From positions 1 to 64,000 of the forward strand of contig NZ_ARQK01000047.1 in assembly GCF_000385215.1 (NCBI RefSeq): a stretch of 64,000 nt of DNA. The letters run 5' to 3'. Position 1 is the first letter of the stretch. Every line of letters starts with the position of its first letter. The position numbers were made by a program, and so were the translations under genes. Under the pieces are notes generated by a model. It worked only from the letters and a program-made list of their open reading frames with translations. It did no database searches and was not told the origin of the DNA. Origin of the DNA: Thioalkalivibrio thiocyanoxidans ARh2 (lineage in GTDB: Bacteria; Pseudomonadota; Gammaproteobacteria; Ectothiorhodospirales; Ectothiorhodospiraceae). Below, piece by piece: positions 43,224 to 52,451 of this stretch.

Positions 43224-44113
43224 GCGGCCGTTTCGATGCGGCCTTTCTCGCTCCGGCCAAGATCAACCGGTTCTTGCATATCACGGGCCGCCGTGCCGAT
43301 GGCTATCACGAGCTGCAAACCGTGTTTCAGTTTGTTGGCCTGGCGGATACGCTGCGCTTTGAACCGCTGGAGTGCGGTCGGATCGAAATGGCGGCCGGGG
43401 CCGTCGACGGGGACAACAACCTGTGCCTGCGGGCCGCGCGGGCGCTGGCGGATGCCAGCGGTGCACCCCTCGGCGTGCGGATACACCTCGACAAATGCAT
43501 CCCGATCGGGGGCGGTCTGGGCGGAGGCAGTTCCGATGCCGCGACCACGCTGGTCGCCCTGAATCACCTGTTCGACCTCGGGCTGTCGGAGGATGAGCTG
43601 GCTGCGATCGGGTTGGGCCTGGGGGCGGATGTGCCGGTGTTTGTGCGCGGCCGGGCGGCCTGGGCCGAAGGCGTCGGGGATCGCCTGGTGCCGGTGGAGC
43701 CGGATATCGCCTGGTTGCTGCTGATGGACCCCGGGGTTTCGGTGGCCACCGGCTCCATGTTTGGCGCGGCGGAATTGACACGCGACTGTCCCGCCGAGAC
43801 AATTTCGCCCGAAATCGATGCCGCGCGCTTTCGTAATGTCTTCGAGCCGCTGGTTCGCCAGCAGTATCCCGCTATTGGCGAGGCACTGGACTGGATGGGC
43901 GGGCAAACGGAGCGCGTGCGTTTGAGTGGCACCGGGGGCTGCATCTTTGGGATGTTCCCGAACGAGGCGGCCGCGCGCCAGGCGCAGACCGCACAGCCCC
44001 GTCCCTGGCGGAGCTGGGTGACGCCGCTGGCGAATGTTTCGCCCCTGCGGCAGTGGCTTCCGCGCAGCGCCGCCGAGGATGATGGTGCCGAGCAACGAGT
44101 AATTGGGCCGTAG
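43220..44113 (+). CDS. ispE: 4-diphosphocytidyl-2-C-methyl-D-erythritol kinase
   Basis: 297 residues, GHMP kinase. It opens FLAPAKINRFLHITGRRADG, the ATP motif is PIGGGLGGGSSDAATTLVAL and the third motif is RLSGTGGCIFGMF. It is the fourth step of the MEP isoprenoid pathway. The last residues (VIGP) and the stop codon TAG come from a tRNA-Gln fragment that begins at 44104: bases 44104-44113 are read in frame. The C-terminus may therefore have been altered by the tRNA duplication. Confidence 0.95.
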   Translation: MSGRFDAAFLAPAKINRFLHITGRRADGYHELQTVFQFVGLADTLRFEPLECGRIEMAAGAVDGDNNLCLRAARALADASGAPLGVRIHLDKCIPIGGGLGGGSSDAATTLVALNHLFDLGLSEDELAAIGLGLGADVPVFVRGRAAWAEGVGDRLVPVEPDIAWLLLMDPGVSVATGSMFGAAELTRDCPAETISPEIDAARFRNVFEPLVRQQYPAIGEALDWMGGQTERVRLSGTGGCIFGMFPNEAAARQAQTAQPRPWRSWVTPLANVSPLRQWLPRSAAEDDGAEQRVIGP

Positions 44114-44241
44114 CCAAGCGGTAAGGCAACGGGTTTTGATCCCGTCATGCGCAGGTTCGACCCGAGCGGCGCAGCCGCGAGAGCACGCCACCGCAGGTGG
44201 CGCCCGAAGGGTGGCGCGCAGCGCCATCATCCTGCCGGCCC
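44104..44241 (+). pseudogene. Broken tRNA-Gln with 68-base insert in the T-loop
   Basis: Bases 44104-44160 are identical to the first 57 bases of the intact tRNA-Gln at 44319, ending at the T-loop GGTTCGA. A 68-base block (44161-44228) follows with three hairpins (GCGGC-GCA-GCCGC; GCCACC-GCA-GGTGGC; GGCGC-GCA-GCGCC). ATCCTGCCGGCCC then resumes the tRNA 3' side (44229-44241), but the 3' CCA end is missing. It cannot fold as a normal tRNA. It overlaps the ispE stop. A perfect 8-bp hairpin (GGATCGGC / GCCGATCC) follows at 44242-44261. Confidence 0.8.
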
Positions 44242-44318
44242 GGATCGGCGGCAGCCGATCCGCCATCGGTTCCGGAAACGGAGCTTGGGCGGGGTCGGGG
44301 CAGGCAACAACGAGCAAT

Positions 44319-44393
44319 TGGGCCGTAGCCAAGCGGTAAGGCAACGGGTTTTGATCCCGTCATGCGCAGGTTCGAATCCTGCCGGCCCAGCCA
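44319..44393 (+). tRNA. tRNA-Gln(TTG)
   Basis: 75 bases with encoded CCA. The acceptor stem TGGGCCG pairs with CGGCCCA, followed by G and CCA. The anticodon stem ACGGG/CCCGT holds the loop TTTTGAT with anticodon TTG. The T-arm is GCAGG-TTCGAAT-CCTGC. It is the only complete copy in the window. The gatCAB operon here could supply Gln-tRNA(Gln) by transamidation, depending on whether a GlnRS exists elsewhere. Confidence 0.97.
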
Positions 44394-44436
44394 TACAACG
44401 AGACCCGCGGCGCTTGCCGCCGCGGCACCGGCCAAA

Positions 44437-44558
44437 GGGCCGGCAGGATGAGAACCGGGTTCGACTTGAGCGGTGTGGCCGCGAGAGAACGCCGCCACTG
44501 GCGGCGGCCCGAAGGGCGGCACGCAGCGCCGTAATCCTGCCGGCCCAGCCATACAACG
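44437..44558 (+). repeat. Second copy of the 68-base multi-hairpin block with tRNA-Gln 3' end
   Basis: GGTTCGA (44458-44464) is followed by a 68-base block (44465-44532) aligned with 44161-44228, then AATCCTGCC... through ATACAACG (44533-44558), 26 bases identical to the 3' end and flank of the intact tRNA (44375-44400). The central hairpin is GCCGCC-ACT-GGCGGC here against GCCACC-GCA-GGTGGC in copy 1, a base-paired double change. GGGCCGGCAGGAT at 44437-44449 is the exact reverse complement of 44534-44546, making one large stem-loop. Confidence 0.75.
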
Positions 44559-49513: not shown

Positions 49514-49645
49514 CGGTGTGCTCGGTCCTGAATGGGGGCGGCGGACGGTATTCGCGGGTGTTGGCGGCAAGAGGGCGGGCTTTCGTGATGTTTGCGGCTT
49601 TTCCCGCAGATTTTCCCGAAGATCGGCGCCATAGGCGGCTTTCGC

Positions 49646-49675
49646 TTGACCTGTTGGCGGCTCAGTCGGGATACT
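49646..49675 (+). promoter_or_regulatory. Possible aceE operon promoter
   Basis: TTGACC (49646-49651), an 18-base spacer, and GATACT (49670-49675), about 112 bases before the aceE ATG. The -35 matches five of six and the -10 four of six. It lies in the 274-base gap between rnt and aceE, which shows no other feature. Confidence 0.45.
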
Positions 49676-49787
49676 TGCGCCTTTTATGCCCGCCCAACAC
49701 CGGCGCATGGTAGCAAATGCCCGCCTGCCCGGTGGCCTGGAGCCGTGATGGCATCCTGATTCCCAACCCGTTTTCAGGGGTAGACGC

Positions 49788-52451
49788 ATGGACCCGAACG
49801 CGACCGAACACGATATCGACCCGCAGGAGACCCAGGAGTGGATTGATGCCCTGGCCTCCGTGCTGGAGACCGACGGCCCCGAACGGGCGCACGCCCTGCT
49901 GGAGCGCCTGGTCGACAAGGCGCGCCGCAGCGGGGCCTACCTCCCGTACTCGGCCAATACCGCCTACGTCAACACCATTCCCACGCACCTGGAACCCGAG
50001 TACCCGGGCGACGGCGCGGTGGAACACCGCATTCGTTCCTATATCCGCTGGAATGCGATGGCGATGGTGGTCAAGGCCAACCGCGTCTCGGCCGAACTCG
50101 GCGGGCATATCGCGACCTTCGCATCCGCCGCGACGCTGTATGACGTCGGGTTCAACCACTTCTGGCATGCCCCGTCGCACGATCACGGCGGCGACCTGCT
50201 GTTCGCCCAGGGGCACTCCTCGCCGGGCATCTACGCCCGCGCGTTCATGGAAGGCCGCCTGACCGAGGAGCAGCTGGATCACTTCCGCCGCGAGGTGGAT
50301 GGCAAGGGGCTGTCCTCCTACCCGCACCCCTGGCTGATGCCGGACTTCTGGCAGTTCCCGACCGTGTCCATGGGCCTGGGCCCGATCATGAGCATCTACC
50401 AGGCGCGCTTCATGCGCTATCTGCAGGACCGGGGCCTGGCGCAGACCGAGAATCGCCGCGTCTGGAGCTTTGTCGGCGACGGCGAGGTGGACGAGCCGGA
50501 GACCCTGGGGGCGATTACCCTGGCCTCGCGCGAGAAGCTGGATAACCTGACCTGGGTGGTGAACTGCAACCTGCAGCGCCTGGACGGCCCGGTGCGCGGC
50601 AACGGCAAGATCGTGCAGGAGCTGGAGGCGATCTTCCGTGGCGCCGGCTGGAACGTGGTCAAGGTCCTGTGGGGCCGCTACTGGGATCCGCTGCTGGCGA
50701 AGGACACCGACGGGCTGCTGCAAAAACGCATGATGGAGGCGGTCGACGGCGACTATCAGAACTACAAGGCGCGTGATGGCGCCTATGTGCGCGAGCACTT
50801 CTTCGGCAAGTACCCCGAACTCAAGCGCATGGTGGCCAACATGTCCGACGAGGACATCTGGCGCCTGAACCGCGGCGGCCATGACCCGGTCAAGGTCTAT
50901 GCGGCCTACAAGGCAGCGGCCGAGCACAAGGGCCAGCCGACCGTGATCCTCGCGCATACGGTGAAGGGCTACGGCATGGGCGCGGCGGGCGAGGCGCAGA
51001 ACCGTACCCACAGCCAGAAGAAGATGGACGCGGACGACATGAAGCAGTTCCGCGACCGCTTCAACATCCCGCTGTCCGACGAGCAGGTGGAGAAGGCCGA
51101 GTACATCAAGCCGGACCCCGACTCTGAAGAAATGAAGTACATGCACGAGCGGCGCAAGGCGCTGGGCGGCTACCTGCCGGTGCGCCGCCCGCTGGCCACC
51201 CCGCTGGAGATCCCGGAGCTGGATGCCTTCAACGGCCTGCTGGAGTCCTCCGGCGAGCGCGAGATGTCCACCACCATGGCCTTCGTGCGCATGCTGACCC
51301 TGCTCGCGCGCGACAAGAAGATCGGCAAGAACATCGTCCCGATCGTGCCCGACGAGGCGCGTACCTTCGGCATGGAGGGCCTGTTCCGCCAGCTGGGGAT
51401 CTACTCCTCGGTCGGCCAGCTCTACGAGCCGCAGGACAAGGACCAGGTGATGTATTACAAGGAGGACAAGAAGGGCCAGATCCTCGAGGAGGGGATCAAC
51501 GAGGCCGGTTCCATGTCCTCCTGGATCGCCGCCGCCACGTCCTATTCCACCCATGGCGTCGCGATGGTGCCGTTCTACATCTTCTACTCGATGTTCGGCT
51601 TCCAGCGCGTCGGCGACCTGATCTGGGCCGCCGGCGACATGCGCGCCCGCGGTTTCCTGATGGGGGCGACCGCCGGGCGCACCACGCTGGCCGGCGAGGG
51701 CCTGCAGCACGACGACGGCCACAGCCTGATGATGGCCGCCAACGTGCCCAACTGCATCGCCTACGACCCGACGTTTGCCTTTGAGCTGGCGGTGATCGTG
51801 CAGGACGGCATGCGCCGCATGTATGCGGAGCAGGAGAGTGTCTTCTACTACATCACCGTGATGAACGAGAACTACCCGCAGCCGGCCATGCCGAAGGGTG
51901 CCGAGGAAGGCATCCGCCGCGGCCTGTACCGGCTGCAGGCCGGCGGGCGCAAGAAAAAGAAGGTGCGTCTGCTGGGCTCCGGCACCATCCTGCGCGAGGC
52001 CATGGAGGCCGCCGAACTGCTGGACAAGGACTTCGGCGTGGCCGCCGAGGTCTGGAGTGCCACCAGCTTCAACGAGCTGGCCCGCGACGGTCGCGATGTC
52101 GAGCGCCACGCGCGCCTGCACCCGGCGGCCAGGCCGCGCAAGTCCTGGGTGGAGGAATGCCTGGGTGGCTCGGATGCCCCGGTGGTCGCCGCGACCGACT
52201 ACGTCAAGGCCTACGCCGATCAGATCCGCGCCTTCGTGCCGGCCGAGTATCGCGTGCTGGGGACCGACGGCTTTGGTCGCTCGGACACCCGTGCGGCGCT
52301 GCGCCGGCACTTCGAGGTCGATCGTTACCACATCGCGGTCACGGCCCTGAAGGCCCTGGCCGATAACGGGACCGTCGAGGTCAAGACCGTCTCCGACGCG
52401 ATCAAGAAGTACAAGATCGACGTCGAACGGCCCAACCCCTTGCAGGCCTGA
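49788..52451 (+). CDS. aceE: Pyruvate dehydrogenase E1 (homodimeric)
   Basis: 887 residues, the homodimeric AceE type. It has the thiamine-diphosphate motif ([20 protein letters not shown] ... [20 protein letters not shown]), [19 protein letters not shown], and the pyrimidine-domain [20 protein letters not shown]. It decarboxylates pyruvate and reductively acetylates the lipoyl groups on AceF. It leads aceE-aceF-lpd. No pdhR-type regulator is seen in the window. Confidence 0.98.

What the first reader, a model, noticed from the sequence alone, without database searches (positions are those of the whole stretch)
44104..44558. tRNA-Gln fragments carrying a 68-base multi-hairpin insert
Two copies of a 68-base, three-hairpin block follow GGTTCGA and precede ATCCTGCCGGCCC, exactly at the T-loop of tRNA-Gln. 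One has a complete 5' tRNA, the other the 26-base 3' end and flank. An intact tRNA lies between. The central hairpins differ by paired changes (ACC/GGT to GCC/GGC), suggesting selection for RNA structure. This may be a small mobile or REP-like element that targets tRNA T-loops.
Basis: partly seen in the sequence, partly recalled or inferred. Interest (0 to 1): 0.72.

Follow-up and report, generated by a model that had tools for sequence, protein, structure and literature searches.

The report
RtT hairpin module inside tRNA T-loops
A small folded DNA/RNA module, known so far mainly as the E. coli 'RtT' RNA, turns out to be an insertable unit that sits at one exact spot (between two A's) in the T-loop of tRNA genes, and the same unit also occurs behind 5S rRNA, in ERIC and REP repeats and in small transposon-like elements of many related bacteria.

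Summary
The 68/69-base blocks are cores of RtT RNA (Rfam RF00391; the second unit scores 60.9 bits). The second copy is a standard RtT unit: an arm complementary to the 3' end of tRNA-Gln, the core, then an exact 18-nt copy of that 3' end including CCA. The first is a hybrid gene: tRNA-Gln to A58, core, tail without CCA, hairpin. Hybrids are no accident. tRNA-Gln hybrids (1-3 tandem copies before the intact gene) occur in 10 species of the genus and in other lineages; tRNA-Ser hybrids occur too, one with a core in the D-loop as well. Among 79 RtT hits behind a tRNA, 67 tails match it 18/18. A core-only model finds the core away from tRNAs: in CGTC-type REPs (own genome too), a MITE, ERIC elements, and between E. 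coli rrnB T1 and T2. All 24 dispersed copies analysed follow A and begin with C; 23 precede A. Best reading: a non-autonomous insertable RNA-hairpin module whose stable-RNA-linked form is RtT. The mobilising enzyme and the function are unknown. RtT and 'insertions within ERIC' (1997) are prior art; the unification and the tRNA hybrids look new in the library I could read.

The parts
44104..44160 (+). tRNA-Gln(TTG) 5' part of the hybrid gene (acceptor 5' strand to A58, TTCGA)
   Evidence: identical to the intact gene over this part
44161..44228 (+). RtT core module, 68 nt, inside the T-loop between A58 and A59
   Evidence: Rfam RF00391 38.6 bits; model R1 E 7e-6
44229..44241 (+). tRNA 3' tail ATCCTGCCGGCCC, positions 59-71, no discriminator and no CCA
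   Evidence: conserved in 10 species
44242..44261 (+). 8-bp hairpin GGATCGGC-ggca-GCCGATCC in place of the CCA end
   Evidence: stem kept, loop variable, G.U substitutions in G015, in 14 hybrid genes
44319..44393 (+). intact tRNA-Gln(TTG)
   Evidence: ARAGORN, Rfam tRNA 68.1 bits
44437..44456 (+). 5' arm of the RtT unit: complement of tRNA 3' end (GGGCCGGCAGGAT) plus GAGAACC
44458..44464 (+). GGTTCGA, T-arm 5' side copy; pairs with GAACC of the 5' arm
44465..44533 (+). RtT core module, 69 nt
   Evidence: RF00391 60.9 bits, 44427-44551; model R1 E 1e-7
44534..44551 (+). exact copy of tRNA-Gln positions 59-76, with CCA; flank identity runs on to 44558

Best explanation
The block is the core of RtT and behaves as a non-autonomous insertable module of about 60-100 bp. 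It starts with C, forms up to four short hairpins (several with CGNAG tips), contains the conserved stretch GGCCCGNAGGGYGA, ends T(A/C), and sits between two A's, usually GA^ATCC. Its hosts are structured sequences: the T-loop of tRNA (between A58 and A59), once a tRNA D-loop, a copied 5S rRNA 3' end, CGTC-type REPs, ERIC and a MITE. Shown: site, distribution, host-matched tails, covariation, conserved hybrids. Inferred: that it moved as a unit; that it is tolerated because nucleotides 59-60 are the part of the T-loop that can bulge out without breaking the 54-58 T-loop fold (my own knowledge); that the RtT form (tRNA, then arm + core + copied tRNA 3' end) arose by tandem duplication of the tRNA 3' end, with the tail kept like its tRNA by recombination and the 5' arm kept complementary by selection for the closing stem; and that hybrids are duplicate tRNA genes with the module, kept upstream of the intact gene as non-decoding tRNA-like RNAs whose CCA has been replaced by a hairpin. 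The enzyme that moves it is unknown.
For: RF00391 identity. Tails: 67 of 79 RtT hits with an upstream tRNA match its last 18 nt exactly, 6 more with 1-2 differences; hosts Gln, Tyr, Ser, Lys, Arg, plus Glu and further Arg isoacceptors. Identity steps up at position 59 and falls after CCA even where flanks are unrelated. Closing stem, positions 59-64: 39 G.U against 5 A.C in 87 units, so the + strand is the folded one. Hairpin D: two-sided compensatory changes in all four pairs. Core-only model finds copies away from tRNAs; flanks show CGTC REPs, CGTCATTGCGAG repeats, a MITE in G151; ERIC and 5S rRNA ends in Enterobacteriaceae; E. coli rrnB between T1 and T2. A common core form has 90 matches in 18 of 30 genomes of the genus, none for the reversed pattern. 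Site: 24/24 dispersed copies preceded by A and starting with C, 23/24 followed by A. In G404 the joined flanks of three copies match uninterrupted REPs next door at 26/29. Hybrids: Gln in 10 species plus other families, Ser in the genus and f122, D-loop plus T-loop in G292; in L340 the hybrid carries a different core from the RtT of the same locus. At the ispE-tRNA-Gln-prs locus only 6 of 76 genomes have the tail copy, so presence is patchy.
Against: No transposase or movement was seen, and no clean empty/occupied pair of otherwise identical strains was found. Within the genus, cores follow the tRNA locus (same tRNA 0.79 identity, different amino acid 0.67), which fits vertical descent and little recent movement between tRNA types. 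Across genera core identity does not depend on the tRNA (0.644 against 0.646), which could be saturation. In the window the hybrid could be a deletion between GGTTCGA of the tRNA and GGTTCGA of an RtT. Dispersed copies may have spread inside REPs or MITEs rather than by themselves.
Confidence: 0.6

Rival explanations
1. RtT is a vertically inherited trailer RNA of certain tRNA operons with a cellular role (stringent response, cold response), and the hybrid in the window is a by-product: a duplicate tRNA-Gln-RtT unit lost the stretch between the two GGTTCGA copies by short-homology deletion.
For: RtT contains its own GGTTCGA. In the genus hybrid cores resemble the neighbouring RtT cores, and G006 and G009 carry in their RtT the core type that other species carry in the hybrid. 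RtT RNA is reported as expressed: Thioalkalivibrio at 10 C (PMC8092127), Pasteurellaceae Northern blots (PMC4986893). The E. coli annotation rttR ends exactly at the copied CCA, +178 from tyrV.
Against: Does not explain cores in ERIC, REP, MITE, 5S or D-loop contexts, nor the L340 hybrid with a different core, nor that hybrids lose CCA and gain a hairpin in several separate cases.
Confidence: 0.25
2. The hybrid genes are functional tRNA-like regulatory RNAs: a CCA-less tRNA-Gln/Ser scaffold that presents the RtT core, for example to titrate a tRNA-binding protein or aminoacyl-tRNA synthetase.
For: Between two clades of the genus the hybrid keeps 90% (tRNA part), 80% (core), 100% (tail) and 80% (hairpin) identity while the spacer is at the shuffled level, 0.50. 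Own promoter-like upstream copies and tandem amplification to three. Hairpin stem kept with variable loop.
Against: The 5' tRNA part is identical to the intact gene in most of clade A, so gene conversion can keep it. One G005 copy has a T-stem mismatch. The L340 hybrid has a degraded D-arm and L132 an 8-nt anticodon loop. No expression data for hybrids.
Confidence: 0.12
3. Assembly or annotation artefact, or chance similarity of GC-rich hairpins.
For: Some carriers are fragmented assemblies; isolated blocks fold only moderately better than shuffles.
Against: Same architecture in many separate assemblies including single-contig ones (G151, E. coli), exact host-matched tails, zero control hits.
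Confidence: 0.01

Closest known systems
RtT RNA (Rfam RF00391; E. coli rttR behind tyrT/tyrV)
   Same: Copy 2 passes the curated cut-off; same arm-GGTTCGA-core-tail-CCA layout; tandem repeats behind a tRNA.
   Different: Here behind tRNA-Gln, and a second core sits in the T-loop of a complete tRNA 5' part without CCA. The core is found here to be independent of tRNAs.
Insertions/interruptions within ERIC and other enterobacterial repeats (Cromie, Collins & Leach 1997; Sharp 1997)
   Same: Copies found here inside ERIC sequences have the same core; the 1997 title says such interruptions keep well-folded RNA.
   Different: I know these papers only by title (reference list of PMC3696847), so whether they noted RtT, rrnB or tRNA is not known to me. 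tRNA T-loop hybrids and the wide bacterial range go beyond their titles.
CGTC-type REPs and BIMEs (PMC3733652; rtT-like BIMEs noted in PMC2965389)
   Same: Frequent host of the module; small, GC-rich, palindromic, no dedicated transposase.
   Different: REPs are single palindromes and are the host here; the module is a separate multi-hairpin unit inside them.
Bacterial MITEs / 23S rRNA intervening sequences (works like)
   Same: Short non-coding inserts located in stems or hairpin tips of structured RNA.
   Different: The module has no terminal inverted repeats; no excision from RNA was tested.

Membership tests
RtT RNA (RF00391) | Covariance model score at or above the curated cut-off (45 bits) | tested here: met
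   44427-44551 scores 60.9. The hybrid copy, 38.6, is below it.
RtT RNA (RF00391) | Follows a tRNA gene and ends with a copy of its 3' end | tested here: met
   18/18 for copy 2; 67 of 79 across loci. Copy 1 has positions 59-71 only.
RtT RNA (RF00391) | RNA released from the tRNA transcript | not testable with these tools
   Reported for E. coli and relatives (PMC4986893, PMC8092127); no reads for this strain.
REP/BIME | Single 20-40 bp palindrome with GTAG or CGTC tag, dispersed in many copies | tested here: not met
   Multi-hairpin 60-100 bp unit, no tag; it lies inside CGTC REPs. Only two dispersed copies of the tested form in the own genome.
MITE | Terminal inverted repeats and target-site duplication | tested here: not met
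   Ends are C... and ...T(A/C) with A on both sides; at most a 1-nt duplication. In G151 it lies within a MITE that has such ends.
ERIC internal insertions | About 70-bp insert at specific ERIC sites | tested here: met
   Cores inside ERIC in L327 and L329. Family definition known to me by title and memory only.
Functional tRNA gene (hybrid copy) | Cloverleaf with CCA or a site for it | tested here: not met
   Position 72 onward replaced by a hairpin in all 14 Gln hybrids of the genus; Rfam tRNA score 35 against 68 for the intact gene.

The most novel reading that the evidence does not exclude
One family of tiny mobile RNA-hairpin modules, without a gene of its own, has colonised stable-RNA genes and palindromic repeats across Gammaproteobacteria and at least one other class by inserting at A^A sites in folded strands, and has given rise to E. 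coli RtT, the rrnB T1-T2 spacer, ERIC insertions and a class of conserved CCA-less tRNA-like hybrid genes.
Probability: 0.45. Interest if true: 0.8.

Novelty: new variant of a known kind. Interest (0 to 1): 0.68.

Why it matters
It turns an obscure 'cis-regulatory' Rfam entry into the stable-RNA-linked form of a widespread insertable module, and ties together features studied separately for decades: RtT behind tyrT, the spacer between the rrnB T1 and T2 terminators (also present on plasmids), ERIC insertions and REP inserts. It makes an old question testable: what moves short non-coding repeats that have no transposase, and does it act on folded single strands. It also warns annotators that one of the two tRNA-Gln genes called here is a CCA-less hybrid.

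Tried and rejected
Chance or artefact: rejected by conserved architecture and zero reversed-pattern hits. Plain REP: rejected, since the module is a different unit inside REPs. Two free-standing tRNA fragments: rejected by the 5' arm and the hybrids. Recent intragenomic spreading between different amino-acid tRNAs within the genus: not supported (same genome, different amino acid 0.657). G.U versus A.C shows the strand but cannot by itself separate RNA from single-stranded DNA, so RNA rests on the published detection. RNAalifold on all RtT units was weak because hairpin lengths differ; the core-only alignment worked for hairpins C and D only. The E. coli record could not be searched as a whole and was read by region instead. 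The 1991 RtT paper is not held, and of the 1997 ERIC papers I have only the titles.

Full report
WHAT IS THERE. Between ispE and prs stand, in order: a tRNA-Gln(TTG) 5' part joined at TTCGA to a 68-nt block, a 13-nt tRNA tail and an 8-bp hairpin (44104-44261); an intact tRNA-Gln (44319-44393); and a unit made of a 5' arm complementary to the tRNA 3' end, GGTTCGA, a 69-nt block and an exact copy of the last 18 nt of the tRNA with CCA (44437-44551). Rfam identifies the last unit as RtT RNA with 60.9 bits against a cut-off of 45, and the first as a weaker RtT match, 38.6 bits.

RtT UNITS TRACK THEIR tRNA. The own genome has RtT units behind tRNA-Ser(CGA), tRNA-Gln(CTG), tRNA-Gln(TTG), behind a 3' half of tRNA-Arg and at one site with only a Ser-type tail. 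In the genus 26 of 30 genomes have RtT, up to 17 matches each; in a class-wide sample 45 of 369; and a family outside the class has it too. Taking every RtT model hit for which a locus was read, without looking at the tail first, 79 of 89 had a tRNA upstream on the same strand, and 67 of these ended in a perfect 18/18 copy of that tRNA's 3' end; 6 more differed by one or two bases. Identity rises abruptly at position 59 and falls after CCA, even where the flanks are unrelated (that set was found through its tails, so the unbiased figure is the one). The 5' arm pairs with the tail: positions 59-62 nearly always, further into the acceptor sequence in Gln, Tyr and Glu units, only about five pairs in Ser units. 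Over positions 59-64 of 87 distinct units there are 39 G.U pairs and 5 A.C oppositions, so the + strand is the one that folds. In E. coli the annotated rttR RNA ends exactly at the copied CCA.

HYBRID tRNA GENES. The first copy in the window is one of a class. tRNA-Gln hybrids stand upstream of the intact tRNA-Gln in 10 species of the genus, once to three times in tandem; in family f122, three near-identical copies in G151 and one in G402; and in a MAG of another lineage, where the core differs from that of the neighbouring RtT and the D-arm is degraded (L340). tRNA-Ser(TGA) hybrids occur in several species of the genus and in G151 and G265. In G292 a tRNA-Ser(GCT) carries one core in the T-loop and one in the D-loop. 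In the Gln hybrids of the genus the sequence stops matching the tRNA at position 72 and a hairpin follows; in Ser hybrids the CCA is lost as well. Between two clades of the genus the spacer is as dissimilar as shuffled sequence (0.50) while tRNA part, core, tail and hairpin keep 0.90, 0.80, 1.00 and 0.80. Gene conversion with the intact gene can explain the tRNA part but not core and hairpin.

THE CORE WITHOUT tRNA. A covariance model of the core alone (hairpin D with two-sided changes in all four pairs) finds copies with no tRNA nearby in the same genomes. They sit in CGTC-type palindromic repeats (own genome C26 and C50, G005, G010, G404), in dRS3-like palindromes of G292, and in several copies of one MITE in G151. 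One common core form has 90 matches in 18 of 30 genomes of the genus and none when the pattern is read backwards. In Enterobacteriaceae cores lie inside ERIC elements and behind 5S rRNA, where the right flank is a copy of the 5S 3' end AACTGCCAGGCAT. E. coli K-12 rrnB has this core between T1 and T2 (model E 9e-7). All 24 dispersed copies examined are preceded by A and start with C, and 23 are followed by A; tRNA-linked ones show GA before in 100 of 121 and AT after in 114 of 121. In G404 the joined flanks of three copies match uninterrupted REPs nearby at 26 of 29.

READING. Shown: one core, one site rule, several unrelated hosts, host-matched tails, conserved hybrids. Inferred: that the core inserts as a unit, probably into folded strands; that the T-loop is hit because it offers GA^ATCC and tolerates extra bases at 59-60; that RtT units are tandemly copied 3' ends with the core, kept in step by recombination and structural selection. 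Not shown: movement, enzyme, function. Published work reports RtT RNA as cold-induced in Thioalkalivibrio (PMC8092127), expressed in Actinobacillus (PMC4986893), length-variable in Salmonella (PMC2658671), similar to some BIMEs (PMC2965389) and containing a tandem GA motif (PMC7657543).

VERDICT. The family is known, and insertions in ERIC were reported in 1997 (titles only). The link between RtT, rrnB T1-T2, ERIC, REP and MITE inserts, and the tRNA hybrids, I did not find stated in the papers I could read.

Noticed in passing
L334 540-612 (E. coli K-12 rrnB, NC_000913.3): The spacer between the rrnB T1 and T2 terminators is an RtT-type core followed by a copy of the 5S rRNA 3' end; near-identical DNA occurs on 17 plasmid records.
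   Followed up: partly
L064, minus strand about 1390-1650: tRNA-Ser(GCT) hybrid with one core in the D-loop and another in the T-loop, just upstream of the intact gene.
   Followed up: partly
L248-L251 (G151): A MITE with ends TAGCCCGGATATTGCACCAAGG carries the core; several dispersed hits with nearly identical cores.
   Followed up: partly
L132 minus strand 850-1030: tRNA-Ser hybrid with an enlarged 8-nt anticodon loop (TTTTTGGA region), so it could not decode normally.
   Followed up: no
L016 (own genome C41) around 1600-1700: RtT unit preceded by only the 3' half of tRNA-Arg(ACG), as expected if an integrative element inserted in the tRNA gene and separated it from its RtT; L193 in G404 looks alike.
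   Followed up: no
L042, L081, L100, L113, L078: In Arg and some Ser units the 5' arm is antisense to the whole tRNA T-arm (about 17 nt), more than the RtT unit needs for its own folding.
   Followed up: no
L205, L209: RtT units behind tRNA-Lys(TTT), again with exact 18-nt tails.
   Followed up: no
window 49607-49796: Rfam aceE-II motif, 242 bits.
   Followed up: no
core modules in general: Hairpin tips are mostly C-GNA-G; such triloops are, from my own knowledge, unusually stable in DNA, which might hint at a single-stranded DNA stage.
   Followed up: no
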